From a virus, in IMG/VR virus record IMGVR_UViG_3300025379_000094, positions 1-21,014 of that record: 21,014 nucleotides of DNA, one strand, 5' to 3'. The position numbers and the translations under genes were made by a program. The notes beneath the pieces are model-generated. The model saw nothing but the letters and a program-made list of their open reading frames with translations. It ran no database searches and was not told where the DNA came from. Positions 2 through 8,285 of the stretch are shown here, one piece after another. Each line of letters begins with the position of its first letter. Position 1 is the first letter of the stretch.

Positions 2-1627
2 CTGGTGACATTCAAATCAGGTTTAATCATTGCTAAACAAAAACCTGCTGGCTCGATTGTCAATCGCTTAATGCAAAATGCTGCTGGTATCAAGCGCACC
101 TATTTGCAAGAAGGCGGTACTGGTAATGTGCTCTCCATTGATATTGATGAGGAAATCAACTCCATTGATTTGACCAATACCGCAACATCTATGACAACTG
201 CCAGAGATAACATCATTGCTAATATCGCTGCTGCTTCTGATGTTCCTGCAATGCTGCTTAAAGATGAAGCCTTCACCCAGGGATTTGGTGAGGGTACTGA
301 AGATGCTAAAGCCATTGTGCAATACATTGATGGCATCCGAGTTGACATGGAAAGCCTATTCGCTTTCTTTGACAAAATTGTCATGCACCGAGCCTGGAAT
401 AAAGAATTCTATGAAGCTGTCAAGAAATCCTATCCAGAGATTTATCGCAAGATGTCTTATGAGCAAGCCTTCTATAGCTGGCAAAAGAACTTCAAAGCTG
501 AGTGGGAATCCCTCATGGAAGAACCAGAGTCTGAAAAGGTCAAGGTTGCTGACATCAAGCTAAAAGGTATTACTGAAATTCTTCGGACTGTATTGCCAGT
601 TGCAGATGGTCAAAATAGAGCCATTCTCATTCAATGGGCGCAAGATAATATCAATGAAATGCCTGATATGTTTCAAAGCAGCTTACAAATTGATACTGAT
701 GCCCTGGCTGAATATGAGCCACCGCAAGAGTCAATGCCAGAAGAAAAAATGCCAAGAGCAGATGGGGGGAAATGGGCTAACCCCATCCCAAAGGCTGATG
801 CTTTCCTAGAAGCAGATCATCCAAGAGATGCTGATGGGAAATTTACTACTGGTTCAGGTGGTAGTGTTGCTACTGAACCTATGGGTAGACAGACCGCAGC
901 GATTACTGCACCAGTAGCTAAGACTGCGCTGATCGAAAAACCACAAGCACCAAAGGCTAAGACTGTCGAAAAGCCAAAAGCACCAACCGCTAATCGAGTG
1001 AAAGAGTTGTTATCAGGTAAGCTGCAACAAGCTGATGTAGAGAGATTGCCTGAAGAAAAGCAAAAAATCTTTACTGAAATGTATGAGAAGGCAGCCGAGA
1101 ATAAAGATCACTTTGACAATACCAATACAAGGATCGCTGAAGAACTAGGTGGTCGGGCTGCCATTGTGCCATTGAAGGGATCGCAAAGAGCAGTCGATAA
1201 GATTACTAAGTCTTATGACAATGATCCAACCAAGATTAAAGATTTACTTCGCACAACCATTGAGATTAAATCGCTAAAGGATGTCAATAGCGCAATTGAT
1301 AAACTCAAAGCTGAATATGGTGAACCAGTAAAGCTAAGAAATTTACTTGATCCTAAGACTGACTCATTGGGTGGATCTGGCTATCGAGATGTCAATATGG
1401 TAGTTGAGGTAAATGGCTCTTATGCTGAAGTGCAGATTAATCTACCAGCAATGATGGAAGCCAAAGAAAAGGCACATGGTTACTATGAGGAAGTTCGCAT
1501 CATTTTAGAAGATGCAGCACAAGCTGGTAAACAACTTAATGTCTATGAAGAAGCTAAGGTCAAAAACCTAAATGATAAGATGAAGGCTCTTTATGATGCA
1601 GCCTGGGAATCCATCACTAAGGCTTGA
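2..1627 (+). CDS. Phage portal protein (DUF1073 type), 5'-truncated, with C-terminal RelA/SpoT-like domain
   Basis: This is the 3' part of a portal gene. The frame is open to the window edge, so the GTG at 5 is only the first possible start codon in view and the true start lies upstream. Numbering from that GTG, residues 1 to about 240 look like the end of a DUF1073 portal, the dodecameric DNA gate of the capsid, followed by acidic/proline linker. At about 270-287 there is a DHPRDADGKFTTGSGG junction of the type seen before cargo domains in phage head proteins. An Ala/Pro/Lys-rich spacer follows. Residues about 331-540 resemble a RelA/SpoT synthetase fold: a KGSQR segment (391-395), DLLRTTIEI (413-421), GYRDVN with Y460 in the place of the G-loop tyrosine, and AEVQI with E475 in the place of the catalytic glutamate. 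The arginine that follows QI in RelA is Asn here. The portal call is fairly firm. Enzymatic activity of the C-terminal domain is unproven. Confidence 0.82.
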   Translation: MVTFKSGLIIAKQKPAGSIVNRLMQNAAGIKRTYLQEGGTGNVLSIDIDEEINSIDLTNTATSMTTARDNIIANIAAASDVPAMLLKDEAFTQGFGEGTEDAKAIVQYIDGIRVDMESLFAFFDKIVMHRAWNKEFYEAVKKSYPEIYRKMSYEQAFYSWQKNFKAEWESLMEEPESEKVKVADIKLKGITEILRTVLPVADGQNRAILIQWAQDNINEMPDMFQSSLQIDTDALAEYEPPQESMPEEKMPRADGGKWANPIPKADAFLEADHPRDADGKFTTGSGGSVATEPMGRQTAAITAPVAKTALIEKPQAPKAKTVEKPKAPTANRVKELLSGKLQQADVERLPEEKQKIFTEMYEKAAENKDHFDNTNTRIAEELGGRAAIVPLKGSQRAVDKITKSYDNDPTKIKDLLRTTIEIKSLKDVNSAIDKLKAEYGEPVKLRNLLDPKTDSLGGSGYRDVNMVVEVNGSYAEVQINLPAMMEAKEKAHGYYEEVRIILEDAAQAGKQLNVYEEAKVKNLNDKMKALYDAAWESITKA

Positions 1628-1809
1628 AATACTTGAGCATTGCTAGGCAGCAGGAATTCTTCTTTGAGTGAAAATTCTTTTGGTTCACCTTTAATCCAGA
1701 TAGCTACCATTGGTATATCTTTTCCAGCATTGACTGATACTGGCAAACCATCTTCTGAAGTTACATAGAAGATAGCTGATGGACTGATTTCGTAATTACC
1801 AATTTTCAT
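1591..1809 (-). CDS. Hypothetical small phage protein (72 aa), convergent with the portal gene
   Basis: I do not recognise this protein. It starts MKIGNYEISPSAIFYV and reads like a small beta-rich soluble protein, with no membrane segment or signal peptide. I chose the ATG at 1809 because AAAGGG lies 6 nt upstream on the minus strand. A TTG five codons earlier has no comparable ribosome binding site. Its 3' end overlaps the 3' end of the portal gene by 37 nt on the opposite strand. It is the last gene of the leftward block and is separated from the next gene upstream by a minus-strand terminator hairpin. It may therefore depend on read-through or on a weak promoter of its own (TTGAGG, 16 nt, TAAAAT) overlapping that terminator. 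Confidence 0.6.
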   Translation of the reverse strand: MKIGNYEISPSAIFYVTSEDGLPVSVNAGKDIPMVAIWIKGEPKEFSLKEEFLLPSNAQVFQALVMDSQAAS

Positions 1810-1841
1810 ATATTGCCCTTTCAATTCATTTTATCATATAA

Positions 1842-1863
1842 CAAAAAGCCCTCAAAAGGGCTT
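1842..1863 (-). terminator. Rho-independent terminator of the leftward small-gene block
   Basis: Read on the minus strand, AAGCCC, a TTTTGA loop and GGGCTT form a six-pair stem followed directly by TTTGTT, giving a U-rich tail. The plus-strand reading has no T tract after the stem. It therefore serves leftward transcripts coming from the genes at 2452 to 1880. Confidence 0.65.
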
Positions 1864-1879
1864 GTAATAATAGGAATTT

Positions 1880-2062
1880 TTACTCGTAGACCACTTCGAC
1901 ATCCGAGCACAATTCGCTAATATAGGCAGCACACTCTGGATTGTTATTGGAATCAAACTCAGAAATAGCATCTTCTTTTGAGAATCCGCTATAGAGAATG
2001 AAGTACTTCAAACAATCGTCATAATCAACTTCCGAACTTTCAATAAAATATTTGACTGACAT
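1880..2062 (-). CDS. Hypothetical small acidic protein (60 aa)
   Basis: This is an unrecognised acidic protein starting MSVKYFIESSEVDYDDCLKY, with scattered cysteines but no clear metal-binding spacing and no transmembrane segment. The ATG at 2062 is preceded on the minus strand by AACCACGAAAGGGAAATC, a copy of the CACGAAAGG leader used by several genes of this island, which supports both the start and the gene being real. It lies in the leftward block, 16 nt downstream of the 76 aa gene and just before a terminator. Small acidic proteins in such accessory islands are often host-takeover or anti-defence factors, but nothing in the sequence shows that here. Confidence 0.6.
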   Translation of the reverse strand: MSVKYFIESSEVDYDDCLKYFILYSGFSKEDAISEFDSNNNPECAAYISELCSDVEVVYE

Positions 2063-2078
2063 GATTTCCCTTTCGTGG

Positions 2079-2309
2079 TTATCTTGGTACTTCCAAAATC
2101 ATTTTGCCATCCATGATTTCAAACAAGATCGCTTTGGCTCTATTCAAACTCTGCCTGGCTCTCTCATTCGCACCCATCGCAATTTCTTCCTGGGCATCAC
2201 TCATAAGACCAGCAACAACAATACCAGCCCCACCCAACTTGTAGCTGGCTGATGATCTGATCTGCGCTATAAATTGCTCAATGTCGCAACCATACATTTC
2301 CTGACTCAT
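2079..2309 (-). CDS. Hypothetical small protein (76 aa)
   Basis: I do not recognise a family. The protein begins MSQEMYGCDIEQFIAQIRSS and appears largely helical, with an Ala/Gly-rich centre and a charged second half (RARQSLNRAKAILFEIMDGK). The start at 2309 overlaps the stop of the upstream 48 aa gene in an ATGA arrangement, and AAGAAAGGGG lies upstream, so the two genes are probably translationally coupled. It is the second gene of the leftward block driven by the promoter near 2488-2516. Confidence 0.6.
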   Translation of the reverse strand: MSQEMYGCDIEQFIAQIRSSASYKLGGAGIVVAGLMSDAQEEIAMGANERARQSLNRAKAILFEIMDGKMILEVPR

Positions 2310-2823: not shown

Positions 2824-3021
2824 ATGAATTTATTGATTGCTGAAAAAGTTGGCGGTTCTTTTCAAAAAATCGGTGTCATGAATGGCGATGAGTTGCTTGC
2901 AGATTGTTTGCTTGCTGTCGGTCTTGCCTACAATGCCAAAAGGTTTTTTGAAGGAGATTCGGCAGCAGTTTTTCTGGATTATCAGTTAGAGGGTATTGAG
3001 TACAGAGTTTTAAAGTTTTAA
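2824..3021 (+). CDS. Hypothetical small protein (65 aa)
   Basis: I do not recognise this protein (MNLLIAEKVGGSFQKIGVMN...). It has alternating hydrophobic and polar residues with a helical centre (ADCLLAVGLAYNAKRFF), and is probably a small soluble alpha/beta protein. AAGGGGG lies 5 nt before the ATG, and the gene follows the 57 aa gene closely, so it is in the same rightward transcript. The next gene begins 26 nt after its stop. Confidence 0.62.
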   Translation: MNLLIAEKVGGSFQKIGVMNGDELLADCLLAVGLAYNAKRFFEGDSAAVFLDYQLEGIEYRVLKF

Positions 3022-3047
3022 GTAGTTCAACCACGAAAGGAGTTGTT

Positions 3048-3290
3048 ATGAAATACCAATTAGATGTTAGTCGTGATGTAGATGCGGATGGCGATGCCTA
3101 TATGCTCTGGCTGCCATTCGGCTTTAGATTTTCAGATGATTTAGTCCATGTCCGAGGTTTTGACACTATGGCTGAAATTCGACAAGCTGCCAAAAATGAT
3201 GTTATTCCCTGCGATTGTGAAGATTGCAAGTTGAATATCAAAGAATTGGCTGCCAAGAAAGCATCTTTTATGAAGGAAATGCTGAAGTAG
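3048..3290 (+). CDS. Hypothetical protein (80 aa) with a CDCEDC cysteine cluster
   Basis: Start at 3048 is set by CCACGAAAGGAG 8 nt upstream, another copy of the island leader. The protein is acidic in its first third (DVSRDVDADGDAY), has an aromatic stretch (MLWLPFGFRF) and carries CDCEDC near residues 55-60 followed by a Lys-rich helix. Three closely spaced cysteines could bind metal, but there is no second cluster for a classical zinc ribbon. No family recognised. A hairpin and then another promoter follow at once, so it is probably the last gene of the first rightward transcript. Confidence 0.62.
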   Translation: MKYQLDVSRDVDADGDAYMLWLPFGFRFSDDLVHVRGFDTMAEIRQAAKNDVIPCDCEDCKLNIKELAAKKASFMKEMLK

Positions 3291-3294
3291 CAAA

Positions 3295-3325
3295 AATGCA
3301 ACAACCCTAAAAAAGTTGTTGCATT
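3295..3325. repeat. Perfect 11-bp inverted repeat overlapping a promoter
   Basis: AATGCAACAAC (3295-3305) and GTTGTTGCATT (3315-3325) are perfect complements around the nine-base loop CCTAAAAAA. On the plus strand no T tract follows, so it is a poor rightward terminator. On the minus strand the stem is followed by TTTGC, but I see no leftward gene it would serve. The right arm contains the TTGCAT -35 box of the next promoter, so it may be a repressor site or a transcript-end stabiliser. Confidence 0.6.
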
Positions 3326-3346
3326 AATACTAAATAGGTATATACT
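3319..3346 (+). promoter_or_regulatory. Sigma70-type promoter, rightward (second cassette)
   Basis: TTGCAT (3319-3324), 16 nt, TATACT (3341-3346). The spacer shares ATACTAAATAGG with the promoter at 2573, and the downstream GTGTAGTAATTAACCACGAAAGGA leader matches too. The -35 box is inside the right arm of the 3295-3325 inverted repeat. Confidence 0.6.
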
Positions 3347-3380
3347 GAAAGTGTAGTAATTAACCACGAAAGGAAAAATT

Positions 3381-3713
3381 ATGAAAGAAGTTGAAATCTG
3401 GGCTGGCAAAAAAGTCATGGCATACCAGGATGCTGACTTGGTCGAGAAAATGCCCTACATCAAAGCTGCTGAATCTGTCTGGTATCAAAGCTGGTTGGAC
3501 AATGGCGGTGAGGATGTCGGTAGCTGCTGCGGTGGCAAAGCGATTCGGATTTACTACTTGGGCAAAGGCAAAAGAAATGTTGTAGAAAAAAGCATTGTGC
3601 CTTGCAGCTTTGTCCAGGGAAATGTGGCTGCTGCGAAATCAGTTGCCCCTGCTTTGGAATTTTTGGCTGCTCATGGGATTGTCGGTGAGTATTACGATGG
3701 TTGGATGGATTGA
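3381..3713 (+). CDS. Hypothetical protein (110 aa)
   Basis: The ATG at 3381 follows TAACCACGAAAGGAAAAATT, the common island leader, and its own promoter. The protein starts MKEVEIWAGKKVMAYQDADL and has a central SCCGGKAIRIYYLGKGKR segment with a Cys-Cys pair in a Gly-rich loop followed by basic residues. The second half is more helical (AAAKSVAPALEFLAAHG), ending YYDGWMD. I do not recognise a family. It looks like a compact soluble protein and shows no membrane segment. It is the first gene of the second rightward transcript, before a small GC hairpin. Confidence 0.65.
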   Translation: MKEVEIWAGKKVMAYQDADLVEKMPYIKAAESVWYQSWLDNGGEDVGSCCGGKAIRIYYLGKGKRNVVEKSIVPCSFVQGNVAAAKSVAPALEFLAAHGIVGEYYDGWMD

Positions 3714-3718
3714 TTAAT

Positions 3719-3732
3719 GCCCCTTCGGGGGC
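3719..3732 (+). other. Small GC-rich hairpin with UUCG loop
   Basis: GCCCC (3719-3723), TTCG loop, GGGGC (3728-3732). The C(UUCG)G tetraloop makes it very stable for its size. It is followed by TTACGAAAGGA rather than a T tract, so it is more likely an intercistronic processing, stabilising or partial-termination hairpin than a full terminator. It sits just upstream of the ribosome binding site of the next gene. Confidence 0.5.
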
Positions 3733-3749
3733 TTACGAAAGGAATCAAA

Positions 3750-4001
3750 ATGGCAATGCCTTATAAAGATTTGGTTGTGTTTGCAAGATATGTTTACAGC
3801 TTCTATGGCGATGGCGGTATTTATGACATGGGAGTGCCTTATGAAATCATTAAGCAAGCTATCCGCTTTTTGCAATCTAAGGATGGTCGCAAGTATCGCT
3901 GCGGTATTCCTGTGTGTGGCGATTCTGTAGACCGAGAGCACATTCGCATGATCTTGGAAGAAGAATATGGATATTGTGAAAAAAAGCTACAAGCTGCTTG
4001 A
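3750..4001 (+). CDS. Hypothetical protein (83 aa)
   Basis: I chose the ATG at 3750 because ACGAAAGGA lies 6 nt upstream. An in-frame ATG at 3717 would run through the stable UUCG hairpin and has no ribosome binding site. The protein starts MAMPYKDLVVFARYVYSFYG, contains three spaced cysteines (RCGIPVC and YGYC) and ends in a charged helix. No family recognised. Its stop overlaps the start of the next promoter by a few bases, so the -35 box of that promoter is partly inside this gene. Confidence 0.62.
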   Translation: MAMPYKDLVVFARYVYSFYGDGGIYDMGVPYEIIKQAIRFLQSKDGRKYRCGIPVCGDSVDREHIRMILEEEYGYCEKKLQAA

Positions 4002-4025
4002 CATTATCCCAAATTAGTATATTAT
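3998..4025 (+). promoter_or_regulatory. Sigma70-type promoter, rightward (third cassette)
   Basis: TTGACA (3998-4003) followed by 16 nt and TATTAT (4020-4025), with TATATT slightly upstream as an alternative -10. Downstream comes TTGTAGTTTCAATTAATCAC and GAAAGGAAATT, the island leader. It would drive the LPD29, alarmone hydrolase and HTH genes and read on into the head genes. Confidence 0.6.
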
Positions 4026-4063
4026 TAAGTTGTAGTTTCAATTAATCACGAAAGGAAATTGAG

Positions 4064-4552
4064 ATGGAAAAGCAAGTTAGTCGTCATGCTGGTGCTGCCA
4101 AAATGATTCGGGCTTACATGAAAGCCAAAGGAATCCCTGGTAGTGTTCGCAGCAAAAGTTATTCAATGGGTAGTAGTGTTCATGTGGATGTTGTCGATTT
4201 GCCACCAGCCCAGTATGAAGATTTGAGAAAGTATGTTGCTCAGTTTGAATATGGTCATTTTGATGGAATGATTGACTACTATGAAATGGACAATGTGAGA
4301 GATGACATTCCCCAGGTCAAGTATGCCTTTGTTAACAACAAAATGAGTGATGAGTTGGGCGAGAAGATTTACCAATTCATGAAAGGCTATTACTCTGGTA
4401 TGGAAGGTGCTCCAGATAGTTTCAAAGATGCTCATAGTTTCTTCAATATGAGTTTCAATGGGTATGCCAGCCACTTGGTTTACAAGTTGTTTGCTGGTGG
4501 TTATATGCAAAACCAGTACTATGAGTTTGTAGAAGGACAGAAAGCAGCATAA
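4064..4552 (+). CDS. LPD29-domain protein (large polyvalent protein-associated domain 29)
   Basis: The 162 aa protein has near residues 10-77 a pattern I associate with LPD29: an N-terminal helix (AAKMIRAYMKAKG), then SVRSKSYSMGSSVHVDV, then FEYGHFDGMIDYYE. This domain is usually part of very large polyvalent proteins that phages and conjugative elements are thought to deliver with their DNA, but free copies also occur. Its activity is not known. The second half (to residue 162) is aromatic-rich and unassigned. The start follows the CACGAAAGGAAATT leader. Its stop overlaps the start of the alarmone hydrolase gene by one base (TAATG), so the two are likely translated together. Confidence 0.6.
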   Translation: MEKQVSRHAGAAKMIRAYMKAKGIPGSVRSKSYSMGSSVHVDVVDLPPAQYEDLRKYVAQFEYGHFDGMIDYYEMDNVRDDIPQVKYAFVNNKMSDELGEKIYQFMKGYYSGMEGAPDSFKDAHSFFNMSFNGYASHLVYKLFAGGYMQNQYYEFVEGQKAA

Positions 4553-5079
4553 TGAATATAGATATTATTTTGGATGCCATATCTTTTGCTATTGATAAGC
4601 ATGGAAAGCAGGTTCGGAAAGATGCTGAAGAATCTGCCTACATTAGACACCCAATCGAGGTGGCTCAATTGTTGATTATGGCTGGTGTTGTTGATGAGGA
4701 TGTGATCGCTGCTGCGGTCTTGCATGATGTAGTAGAAGATTGTGGGGTTTCGGTGGCTGACATTTCTGCTCGCTTTAATCCTAGAATTGGATTGATTGTG
4801 CAAGAGGTTAGCGATGATCCTGCTTTAAGTGGCATGGCTCGTAAAGATGCCCAGGTAGTCAAAGTTGGCATGATTAGTCCAGAAGGTAAATTAATCAAAG
4901 TAGCGGATAAAATCTGTAACTTGCAAGATGTTTTGTATAGACCCCCTGTAACTTGGGATGATGCTAAAAAGGCTGCCTATTTTGATTTTGCAGAAAGAGT
5001 TTTTAATGCTGCCAATATTAAAAACCCTTATTTGATTGAGTGCTTCAATGATTTAATGGAAAAAAGAATTGTAATTTAA
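4552..5079 (+). CDS. HD-domain (p)ppGpp hydrolase, Mesh1/small alarmone hydrolase type
   Basis: This 175 aa protein covers the typical length of a stand-alone SpoT/Mesh1 hydrolase. In order: H17 in the KHGKQVRK segment; YIRHPIEVA with metal ligand H33; AAAVLHDVVED with H58-D59 and the catalytic pair E62-D63; and KLIKVADKICNL with D119 and N123. All match the HD hydrolase pattern that removes the 3'-pyrophosphate from ppGpp and, in toxSAS antitoxins, can also undo pyrophosphorylated tRNA or alarmone analogues. There is no synthetase, TGS or ACT domain. It is cytosolic. The start overlaps the LPD29 stop (TAATG), and its own stop overlaps the HTH start in the same way. Likely roles are lowering alarmone levels during infection, or protecting the cell from the RelA/SpoT-like domain on this phage's portal. 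Confidence 0.85.
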   Translation: MNIDIILDAISFAIDKHGKQVRKDAEESAYIRHPIEVAQLLIMAGVVDEDVIAAAVLHDVVEDCGVSVADISARFNPRIGLIVQEVSDDPALSGMARKDAQVVKVGMISPEGKLIKVADKICNLQDVLYRPPVTWDDAKKAAYFDFAERVFNAANIKNPYLIECFNDLMEKRIVI

Positions 5080-6080: not shown

Positions 6081-8285
6081 ATGCCATTTGAATCCGAAGC
6101 ACAAAGAAAAGCTATGTATGCTGCTTTAGCAGGGCATAGCAATATCGGAATTCCTAAAGAAGTGGCTAAAAAATTCATCAAACATAGTGAAGATGAAGTC
6201 CCAGAAGAACCTACTCTTTTATCTACCCCAGAAGAAGAAATCCAAGTTCGCAATGGTAGAAAAGAAGAAATTAAAAAATTTAAAGGTGATTTGGCTGATG
6301 TAGCCAGAATCATTCAAGGTCTTAAAGATCAATCTCAGGTTGTACCTCGCTTTGGTCAAGATGCCGATCCTTGTTGGGAAGGCTACAAACAAGTTGGCAT
6401 GAAAGAAAAAGATGGCAAAGAAGTGCCAAATTGTGTGCCAGATGCTGCTGATCTAGTAGCCAAAACTCCAGAAGTAGTTATGCCAGTTGCTAATAATGCA
6501 GGTGCAGCAGGTCGGGCTTCTGGAATCATGTTTGTTACTGGTGAAGGTCATACCCTATTAATTCGCAGGGGCGCAGGTGGTGGAGATTACCCTAGTACCT
6601 GGTGTGTGCCTGGCGGTCATCAAAAAGAAGGCGAAACCCTAGAAGAAGCTGCTCGCAGAGAAACCAAGGAAGAAACTGGTATTGAGTACAAGGGTAAGCT
6701 AGAAGTATTACATGATGATGGACAATTCTGCACCTACATTGCTAGAAATGTAGAAAAAGTCGATGTCAAACTCAATTATGAGTCTACTGGCTATGATTGG
6801 TGCGATCCATTAAATCCACCATTGCCATTGCATCCTGGTTTAGAAGTTGCTTTTAAGATTGCATCTGCTAAGACTGAAACCGATGTAGCACAATTAATGG
6901 CTGATGACTTATTACCAAGTCCTCAGATGTATGCAAATATTGGTCTTTTTGCTATTCGCATTACTGGTACTGGCTTGGCTTATCGGTCAAGCATTGGCGA
7001 GAATGTATGGCGAGATCCATCCCTTTATTTGAATGAAGAATTCTTAAAGAGATGTAATGGCTTGATGGTAATCATGGATCACCCAGAGACTGCGGTTTTG
7101 ACTTCTAAGGAATTTAAAGATCGAGCAGTCGGAAGTATTATGCTTCCCTACATCAAAGGTGATGAAGTCTGGGGCATTGCAAAAATCTATGACCAAGATG
7201 CTGTCGATGAAATTTGTGAGGGAGAGATTTCTACCTCACCTTCAGTAGTATTTGACAATACTGCTGGAAACACTACACTAACTACTGAGAATGGCGAGCC
7301 ACTCTTAATAGAAGGTGTCCCATTCCTTTTAGATCATATAGCTATTGTTACAAAAGCTAGAGGATCTAAGGGTGTATGGGATAAGGGTGGCGATGCCACA
7401 GGAGTTCTTTTAAATAACCAAGAGGTGTCTGATATGAATGACAATACTATTGCACCAAAGGCAGATGCCCAAGGTGATAAGTTGGATGCTGTACTCGCTA
7501 TGCTAGGCGATTTGGCTGCAAGAATGGATGCGATGGAGAAGGAATTACCTGCTCCACCATTAGTTACTGCTGCTGATAAAAAAGCAAAAAAAGATGATGA
7601 TATGAAGAAACATCGTAAAGATGACGATGAAGAAGCATATTCTGATGACGAAGAAGAAGCTAAGAAGGATGACGATGAGTCTGAAGGCGAAGCTAAAAAA
7701 GAAATGATGCGTAAAGTGGATGCTAAGAAAAAGCACCGCAAAGATGCAGAAGGCTCTGATCCTAAAGAGCATGACAAAGGTGAAATTAAGCCAGATGATG
7801 AAGGCGAAGTTGAGCACCCAGGTCACATGGAATTCAAAAAAGATGATGACGAAGAAGAAGAAGCAATGCGTAAAGATGAAGAAGAAGCTGCAATGTGTGA
7901 TGCACAAGCTAAAGCTGACTCTGTATTCGCTTCCTTTGGCAAGTCTGCATCTCGCCCATTAAAAGGCGAAGGTTTAATGTCTTATCGCAAGCGTCTGCTT
8001 CGTGGCTTACAAGCCTATTCTGACAGCTACAAGTCAGTAAACTTGGCTTCCATCAAAGATGCTCAATTGTTGAATATCGCTGAAAAGCAGATTTTCAATG
8101 ATGCTTTAATGGCTGCTAAATCCCCAAGTATGTTCGCTGCTGACCAACTCATTGAAATGAATGAGAAGGATCGTGCTGGTCGTACTATTACGAAGTTCAA
8201 AGGCTCAATGGAAGCATGGTTAGGTGACTTTAAAGTACCTTCTATGCGAGTTAAAGAATTTCATCTTTTCAACAACAAGCGATAA
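6081..8285 (+). CDS. Nudix hydrolase - prohead protease (DUF2213) - scaffold fusion protein
   Basis: This 734 aa protein appears to have four parts. Residues 1-40 form a short phage leader motif (MPFESEAQRKAMYAALAG). A Nudix domain lies near 145-262 with a full Nudix box: G179, E185, R193, E194, E197, E198, G200. A DUF2213-like capsid protease lies near 280-445, with H334 in MDHP, serines in STSPS (385-389) and H419 in LDHIAIV as likely active-site residues. A coiled/acidic scaffold region runs from about 452, with Lys/Asp/Glu low complexity at 500-605 and a conserved-looking helical end. The protease matures the procapsid and the scaffold is cut and expelled. The role of the Nudix part is unclear: it could hydrolyse nucleoside diphosphate-linked compounds. 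A good internal ribosome binding site may also give free scaffold. Confidence 0.78.
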   Translation: MPFESEAQRKAMYAALAGHSNIGIPKEVAKKFIKHSEDEVPEEPTLLSTPEEEIQVRNGRKEEIKKFKGDLADVARIIQGLKDQSQVVPRFGQDADPCWEGYKQVGMKEKDGKEVPNCVPDAADLVAKTPEVVMPVANNAGAAGRASGIMFVTGEGHTLLIRRGAGGGDYPSTWCVPGGHQKEGETLEEAARRETKEETGIEYKGKLEVLHDDGQFCTYIARNVEKVDVKLNYESTGYDWCDPLNPPLPLHPGLEVAFKIASAKTETDVAQLMADDLLPSPQMYANIGLFAIRITGTGLAYRSSIGENVWRDPSLYLNEEFLKRCNGLMVIMDHPETAVLTSKEFKDRAVGSIMLPYIKGDEVWGIAKIYDQDAVDEICEGEISTSPSVVFDNTAGNTTLTTENGEPLLIEGVPFLLDHIAIVTKARGSKGVWDKGGDATGVLLNNQEVSDMNDNTIAPKADAQGDKLDAVLAMLGDLAARMDAMEKELPAPPLVTAADKKAKKDDDMKKHRKDDDEEAYSDDEEEAKKDDDESEGEAKKEMMRKVDAKKKHRKDAEGSDPKEHDKGEIKPDDEGEVEHPGHMEFKKDDDEEEEAMRKDEEEAAMCDAQAKADSVFASFGKSASRPLKGEGLMSYRKRLLRGLQAYSDSYKSVNLASIKDAQLLNIAEKQIFNDALMAAKSPSMFAADQLIEMNEKDRAGRTITKFKGSMEAWLGDFKVPSMRVKEFHLFNNKR
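7422..7436 (+). promoter_or_regulatory. Internal ribosome binding site and start for a nested scaffold protein
   Basis: GAGGTG (7422-7427) lies 6 nt before an in-frame ATG (7434-7436), codon 452 of the fusion gene. This falls exactly between the protease domain and the coiled scaffold region. Starting here would give a 283 aa scaffold (MNDNTIAPKADAQGDK...) ending at 8285, as with lambda Nu3 nested in gene C. Confidence 0.5.

What the first reader, a model, noticed from the sequence alone, without database searches (positions are those of the whole stretch)
1000..1627. RelA/SpoT-like nucleotidyltransferase domain fused to the C-terminus of a phage portal protein
Residues about 331-540 of the truncated portal gene show an ordered set of RelA/SpoT-like elements: KGSQR, DLLRTTIEI, GYRDVN (Y460) and AEVQI (E475). 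In known synthetases the tyrosine stacks on the guanine base and the glutamate is catalytic. One usual arginine after EVQI is replaced by asparagine, as in some divergent toxin-type members. A domain that makes alarmones or pyrophosphorylates tRNA, placed on the portal, would be present in about 12 copies in each virion. DUF1073 portals are known to carry the anti-CBASS Acb1 domain at this position, so this may be a cargo slot. Presence in the virion is inference.
Basis: partly seen in the sequence, partly recalled or inferred. Interest (0 to 1): 0.85.

Follow-up and report, generated by a model that had tools for sequence, protein, structure and literature searches.

The report
Portal-borne toxin-type alarmone synthetase with antidotes
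A lake phage carries, fused to the end of its DNA-gate (portal) protein, an enzyme domain closely related to a bacterial weapon that burns up ATP to make a toxic nucleotide, next to two probable antidote genes, and related phages carry a different toxin or none at the same spot, which suggests that the portal is an exchangeable cargo carrier.

Summary
Sequence (E 4e-15) and AlphaFold2/Foldseek (pLDDT 96; top hit E 6e-9) both put it next to Tas1/Apk1, the T6SS (p)ppApp synthetase. Synthetase-motif residues are invariant in 27 relatives; selection is purifying.

(1) A convergent 72-aa gene ('IA', 1591-1809, minus strand) accompanies the domain in 11/11 relative clusters and 0/43 without it; in a MuF-synthetase locus it lies in the classical downstream immunity position. 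(2) A MESH1-like alarmone hydrolase gene (4552-5079): 7/9 against 0/34. This mirrors the known Apk2-IapK-Aph1 set, although IA resembles no solved immunity protein. (3) The slot is exchangeable: sister portals carry a zeta-toxin-like kinase or nothing (at least 11 state changes on the portal tree), behind a junction motif DHPRDxDGKF that also precedes ADP-ribosyltransferase, PBECR3, zeta and topoisomerase cargo on other head proteins.

Verdict: new variant of a known kind, a portal-carried counterpart of MuF-Apk2 polymorphic toxins. Enzyme activity, virion location and delivery are untested.

The parts
2..760 (+). C-terminal part of the phage portal protein (PF06381/DUF1073 family), gene cut by the window edge
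   Evidence: L010 full-length copy: PF06381 E 1.4e-16; 41-46% identical to DUF1073 portals of Klebsiella, Yersinia and Pantoea phages
815..844 (+). Junction motif DHPRDADGKF that precedes cargo domains, fused or separate
   Evidence: In Rel-type, zeta-type and separate cargo ORFs; 0 matches in reversed ORFs; one match in the window; 110 stretches in IMG/VR
845..1015 (+). Pro/Ala/Lys/Gly-rich linker
   Evidence: sequence
1016..1624 (+). RelA/SpoT-type synthetase domain of Tas1/Apk type (motifs KGSQR, DLLR, GYRDVN with Y460 at 1382-1384, AEVQI with E475 at 1427-1429)
   Evidence: phmmer Tas1 3.9e-15; AF2 pLDDT 96; Foldseek Tas1 6.3e-9; catalytic residues invariant in 27 sequences; dN/dS 0.08-0.25
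1591..1809 (-). IA: 72-aa candidate immunity protein gene, convergent with and overlapping the 3' end of the toxin frame
   Evidence: 11/11 Rel clusters against 0/43 others; collection-wide IA scan gives 29 contigs, all Rel-bearing; dN/dS 0.06-0.53, most below 0.3; + strand operon position after MuF-Rel in L112, E 1.7e-8; AF2 pLDDT 94
1828..1863 (-). Terminator-like hairpin of the upstream minus-strand gene and a promoter-like site reading toward IA
   Evidence: consensus scan only, numbers near chance; similar TATGATA-like and Shine-Dalgarno-like sequences upstream of IA in L019, L073, L034, L108
4552..5079 (+). HD: MESH1-like small alarmone hydrolase gene (Aph1-like role)
   Evidence: full-length match to human MESH1/HDDC3 E 8.7e-30 with HD motifs; HD_4 1.6e-15; 7/9 Rel clusters against 0/34 others

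Best explanation
It is a phage-encoded polymorphic toxin whose trafficking part is the portal protein. The C-terminal domain is an Apk-type (Tas1-like) 3'-pyrophosphokinase that most likely transfers pyrophosphate from ATP to ADP/ATP, giving (p)ppApp and draining ATP. Being part of the portal, it is built into every head (about 12 copies, inferred from portal symmetry). I infer that it is released or ejected with the DNA at infection, possibly after cleavage near the DHPRDxDGKF junction. IA (by binding the enzyme) and the HD protein (by hydrolysing its product) protect the phage-producing cell and the phage's own replication. The cargo is swapped between relatives by recombination behind the conserved junction. 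Shown here: fold, family, intact motifs, selection, linkage to IA and HD, cargo exchange. Inferred: catalysis, adenine preference, virion location, delivery, neutralisation by IA.
For: Tas1 as nearest relative by sequence and fold. 13 invariant positions, including K72, R76, K80, D94, R97, Y141, E156 and Q158 of the domain. The syn2 RxT and syn3 N are the Apk rather than the RSH pattern of PMC12226406. Purifying selection on domain and IA. IA tied to the domain both ways. HD is MESH1-like and tied to the domain. The same domain in Bordetella phage PHB04 lies on the gene after the portal with an HD hydrolase gene just downstream, and that hydrolase is the best match to the window's HD gene among 50,697 phage records. 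MuF-Apk2, IapK and Aph1 form an experimentally proven toxin plus two antidotes (PMC12226406). Cargo alternates with a zeta-toxin-like kinase (Zeta_1 toxin 6eph E 4.3e-11) and changes at least 11 times on the portal tree.
Against: No biochemical evidence. Portals normally stay in the capsid, so delivery needs release or cleavage that is not shown. IA has no sequence or fold match to any solved protein, Tis1 of the Tas1 complex included, so its immunity role rests on linkage alone. The HD gene is absent from the 3'-flanking region of some Rel loci (clusters of L026 and L104). syn4 is IN, as in Tas1 (VN) but not as in Apk2. Known MuF toxins are linked to temperate phages, whereas no tyrosine integrase was found in 21 relatives.
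Confidence: 0.62

Rival explanations
1. Toxin acting in the producing cell: the domain works as a late-infection or superinfection-exclusion toxin (TA-like), and the portal fusion merely times, places or silences it when packed into the head; it is not delivered to new cells.
For: Portals are not known to be ejected; IA and HD genes are in the same genome, so the producing cell is clearly exposed. In two clusters the domain is a separate ORF next to the portal.
Against: Fusion to a virion protein or placement behind the same junction motif recurs in unrelated head proteins, which fits packaging better than timing.
Confidence: 0.18
2. Counter-defence or host reprogramming: the virion-borne synthetase and the phage hydrolase tune host alarmone or nucleotide signalling for the phage, without being a toxin against rivals.
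For: Enzyme and product hydrolase encoded together; RelA/SpoT domains in polyvalent proteins have been read as possible signalling effectors (PMC5512222).
Against: Nearest kin is a bactericidal toxin; the linked small partner and the alternation with a zeta-toxin-like domain are toxin-immunity traits.
Confidence: 0.1
3. tRNA 3'-CCA pyrophosphokinase like FaRel2/CapRel rather than a nucleotide alarmone synthetase.
For: Same superfamily; FaRel2 appears in the Foldseek list (ranks 38-45).
Against: Tas1 and exported alarmone synthetases score far better; the HD hydrolase partner fits a free nucleotide product at least as well.
Confidence: 0.07
4. Decayed, non-catalytic structural appendage of the portal.
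For: Only that activity was not measured.
Against: Catalytic motif residues invariant across 27 diverse sequences, dN/dS 0.08-0.25, strict linkage to IA.
Confidence: 0.03

Closest known systems
Apk2: MuF polymorphic toxins with (p)ppApp synthetase domain plus IapK and Aph1 (Streptococcus pneumoniae, Mannheimia, Pasteurella, Bacteroides prophages; PMC12226406, PMC12691689)
   Same: C-terminal synthetase on a phage head protein; a small partner gene and an alarmone hydrolase gene nearby
   Different: Carrier is the portal, not MuF; the small partner is convergent on the other strand and shows no detected relation to a solved immunity protein (IapK sequences were not compared); the hydrolase lies about 2.9 kb downstream instead of in a tight operon; no integrase found
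Tas1/Apk1-Tis1 (Pseudomonas aeruginosa T6SS effector, PDB 6ox6)
   Same: Nearest solved relative by sequence and fold; shared motifs including an EIQVN-type syn4
   Different: Delivered by PAAR/T6SS; immunity Tis1 has no detected similarity to IA
Polyvalent proteins and portal fusions with PBECR, 2H and inorganic pyrophosphatase domains (PMC5512222)
   Same: Effector domains fused to portal or MuF and thought to be injected; RelA/SpoT known on MuF and in polyvalent proteins
   Different: A portal-RelA fusion, its antidote genes, and the shared junction motif were not found described in the passages read
Neisseria Zeta_1 toxin (PDB 6eph)
   Same: Relative of the alternative cargo in the same portal slot (E 4.3e-11)
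   Different: Here fused to or placed next to a portal; its antidote was not sought

Membership tests
RelA/SpoT synthetase superfamily (SYNTH domain) | SYNTH fold | tested here: met
   AF2 pLDDT 96.2; Foldseek ranks 1-45 all alarmone synthetases
RelA/SpoT synthetase superfamily (SYNTH domain) | ATP, Mg, base-stacking Tyr and catalytic Glu motif residues | tested here: met
   K72, R76, K80, D94, R97, Y141, E156, Q158 invariant in 27 sequences
RelA/SpoT synthetase superfamily (SYNTH domain) | Match to Pfam PF04607 | tested here: inconclusive
   Window domain not reported at E<=1; homologue in PHB04 passes the cut-off
Apk ((p)ppApp synthetase toxins) | Closest similarity to Tas1/Apk1 | tested here: met
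   phmmer 3.9e-15, profile 5.9e-21, Foldseek 6.3e-9
Apk ((p)ppApp synthetase toxins) | Apk-type syn2/syn3/syn4 signatures (RYT, GxN, YH against AVR, SxH, IR) | tested here: inconclusive
   RTT and DVN are Apk-like in two of three motifs; syn4 IN matches Tas1 (V-N) only in part
Apk ((p)ppApp synthetase toxins) | Makes (p)ppApp and is toxic in cells | not testable with these tools
   needs enzyme assay and expression
Apk2 (MuF polymorphic toxin) | N-terminal MuF carrier | tested here: not met
   carrier is PF06381 portal
Apk2 (MuF polymorphic toxin) | Linked (p)ppApp hydrolase (Aph1) | tested here: met
   MESH1-like HD gene, 7/9 clusters against 0/34; substrate not tested
Apk2 (MuF polymorphic toxin) | Linked small binding immunity protein (IapK) | tested here: inconclusive
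   IA strictly linked but with no detected homology to a solved immunity protein; IapK sequences not compared
Polymorphic toxin system | Constant carrier with exchangeable C-terminal toxins | tested here: met
   Rel, zeta-like or no cargo behind the same junction; at least 11 state changes on the portal tree

The most novel reading that the evidence does not exclude
The portal vertex is a general carrier for a previously unnamed class of polymorphic phage toxins, marked by a DHPRDxDGKF junction used by fused and stand-alone cargo alike (alarmone synthetase, zeta kinase, ADP-ribosyltransferase, nuclease, topoisomerase). For the synthetase branch the immunity gene is written on the opposite strand, overlapping the toxin's end, and in some polyvalent relatives nested antisense inside the toxin gene, so that toxin and antidote cannot be separated by recombination and are expressed at different times.
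Probability: 0.4. Interest if true: 0.85.

Novelty: new variant of a known kind. Interest (0 to 1): 0.72.

Why it matters
MuF-borne toxins have proven enzymatic activity, but why a virion carries them and whether they reach a new host is open. A portal carrier gives a defined stoichiometry and position, sister phages with an empty, zeta-type or synthetase-type slot, and two antidote genes, so delivery, self-protection and phage-phage conflict become directly testable. The junction motif offers a sequence handle for finding virion-packed effectors that profile searches miss, since Pfam does not see this domain.

Tried and rejected
Pfam, PHROGs and NCBIfam on the window domain gave only weak or irrelevant hits (ING, ChaB), which alone would wrongly argue against the call. 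The idea that HD is in all Rel phages was rejected: it is missing downstream in two clusters, and a different, weaker HD gene upstream in L028 and L029 may or may not replace it. The idea that IA is an antisense artefact of the conserved toxin C-terminus was tested by training a profile without the overlapping end and without the nested and L112 sequences: L112 (sense strand) still scores 1.7e-8, three nested ones about 1e-3 and one 0.2 (two others not found), profile-profile 97.9%. Changes by codon position in L119/L120 cannot tell the two frames apart, because third positions coincide. The idea that IA is Tis1-like was dropped for lack of sequence or fold match. IA was not found in the phages collection. 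The genome-contig scan gave only one weak relative, so no host could be named. The scan with the wide IA alignment failed and was repeated with closer sequences. No tyrosine integrase (PF00589) was found in 21 relatives. A first, un-deduplicated co-occurrence count was discarded.

Full report
What is there. The window is a 21-kb viral record with no flanking genome. Its first gene, cut by the window edge, runs to the stop at 1625-1627. The complete gene in the contig of L010, 100% identical over portal and domain, encodes 760 aa with Phage_portal_3/DUF1073 at 40-332. The C-terminal 221 aa match the T6SS effector Tas1 (6ox6) at E 3.9e-15 by plain phmmer and 5.9e-21 by family profile. AlphaFold2 with 27 aligned sequences gives pLDDT 96.2, pTM 0.89 and the alpha/beta order of a SYNTH domain. 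Foldseek puts Tas1 first (6.3e-9), then exported SAS, RelP, Rel, RelQ, SpoT and FaRel2, with nothing else among the first 45. Thirteen positions are invariant over sequences down to 24% identity, including the ATP-binding K/R/K, the Mg-binding D, the base-stacking Y141 (Y460) and the catalytic E156 (E475) (roles from general knowledge of the family). dN/dS of the domain is 0.08-0.25. The enzyme is therefore under selection to stay intact.

Which reaction. PMC12226406 lists Apk signatures syn2 RYT, syn3 GxN, syn4 YH against RSH AVR, SxH, IR. The window has RTT, DVN and IN: two of three lean to Apk, and the third is Tas1-like (EIQVN). I take adenine nucleotides as the likeliest acceptors, without proof.

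First partner. A minus-strand ORF, 1591-1809, ends inside the toxin frame. Homologues flank the domain in every portal-family locus with enough sequence: 11 of 11 clusters with the domain, 0 of 43 without (Fisher 1e-11; the 'none' class there includes loci with a separate zeta ORF). A scan of 2.9 million viral contigs with this small protein alone returned 29 contigs, all of which are in the list of domain-bearing contigs. dN/dS outside the overlap is 0.06-0.53, in most computable pairs below 0.3. Shine-Dalgarno-like sequences precede its ATG in several loci. In L112 a MuF-type head protein (phrog_241) carries the synthetase domain, and the IA homologue begins at the toxin's stop on the same strand, E 1.7e-8 with a profile that had not seen it. 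This is the standard place of an immunity gene. The AF2 model of IA is confident (pLDDT 93.8) but matches no solved fold, so it is not recognisably Tis1-like.

Second partner. Gene 4552-5079 aligns over its full length with human MESH1 (8.7e-30) with HD motifs kept. It lies downstream within 5 kb in 7 of 9 clusters with the domain and in 0 of 34 without (Fisher 1e-6). Pfam HD_4 finds a strong match in 14 records, none of them zeta-type or cargo-free. Independently, Bordetella phage PHB04 has the domain on the protein after its portal with an HD hydrolase gene close downstream, and that hydrolase is the closest of 50,697 phage records to the window's. Synthetase, small partner and hydrolase is the known Apk2-IapK-Aph1 arrangement.

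The slot. Portals of the same family end after about 470 aa, or continue with the synthetase domain, or with a P-loop domain that matches Zeta_1 toxin (4.3e-11). On the portal tree the state changes at least 11 times (shuffled mean 22: clustered, but far from a single origin; a quick tree with open forks, and one 'none' row, L192, comes from a truncated locus). Both cargo types, fused or as a separate ORF beside the portal, follow a motif of the form [DE]HPR[DG]xxG[KQ]F and a Gly-rich stretch; 102 ORFs have it, none in the reversed set. A strict DNA form of the motif hits 110 stretches in IMG/VR. Of ten sampled proteins, six have PF06381 above cut-off and one Portal_Mu, and the others show weaker portal or head-protein similarity. 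Behind the motif lie ADP-ribosyltransferase (1e-19), zeta toxin (1e-19), topoisomerase IB, PBECR3, or nothing recognised. The motif may be a packaging or processing signal; that is inference.

Mechanism. Best supported: a virion-borne Apk-type toxin with phage-encoded self-protection. A portal fusion implies about twelve copies in each head, with the C-terminus facing the capsid interior in known portals (general knowledge). How it would leave the portal and enter the cell is unknown; a cut at the junction is possible. The opposite-strand IA gene could be expressed when late genes are silent, that is early after entry, which would protect the phage's own infection. This is inference.

Relation to the known. 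Toxin domains on MuF, RelA/SpoT on MuF and in polyvalent proteins, and PBECR, 2H and pyrophosphatase fusions to portals are published. I found no paper that describes a portal-synthetase fusion or the convergent partner, within the open-licence library only. Hence: new variant of a known kind. By the letter of the definition it is not Apk2, because the carrier is not MuF.

Noticed in passing
L119:6600-6803 (-), L120:6585-6788 (-), L122:6570-6806 (-), L125:6585-6773 (-); weaker L121, L123: IA-like ORFs lie antisense, nested inside larger synthetase-bearing ORFs (in L122, L123, L125 the sense frame continues to ParB or topoisomerase domains): possible double coding of toxin and antidote. Clean-profile E 1e-3 to 0.2, profile-profile probability 97.9%.
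   Followed up: partly
window 815-844; 110 stretches in IMG/VR (from L208 on): Motif DHPRDxDGKF plus Gly-rich stretch marks the junction between head proteins and diverse effector domains; it also stands in separate cargo ORFs behind a common leader of about 45 aa.
   Followed up: partly
window 6081-8285 (+): One gene joins a NUDIX domain to a DUF2213 head-maturation-protease-like part; a further nucleotide-hydrolysing domain on a head protein, a fusion type reported in PMC9503650.
   Followed up: no
L168:6398-8260 (+): Two tagged cargo ORFs in tandem after one portal: an unknown 230-aa protein and a zeta-like kinase.
   Followed up: no
L077, L073, L074, L076, L080, L104: In these portal relatives the synthetase is a separate ORF with its own tagged leader, still with IA convergent to it.
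   Followed up: partly
L028:2530-3045, L029:2349-2864: A different, weaker HD-domain gene upstream of the portal in synthetase phages of the class that lacks the MESH1-like gene downstream.
   Followed up: no
window 1880-2309 (-), 2824-4552 (+): Set of small genes of unknown function between portal and head-morphogenesis gene; in several plain relatives these two genes are adjacent, so the cargo and its antidotes sit in an inserted island.
   Followed up: partly
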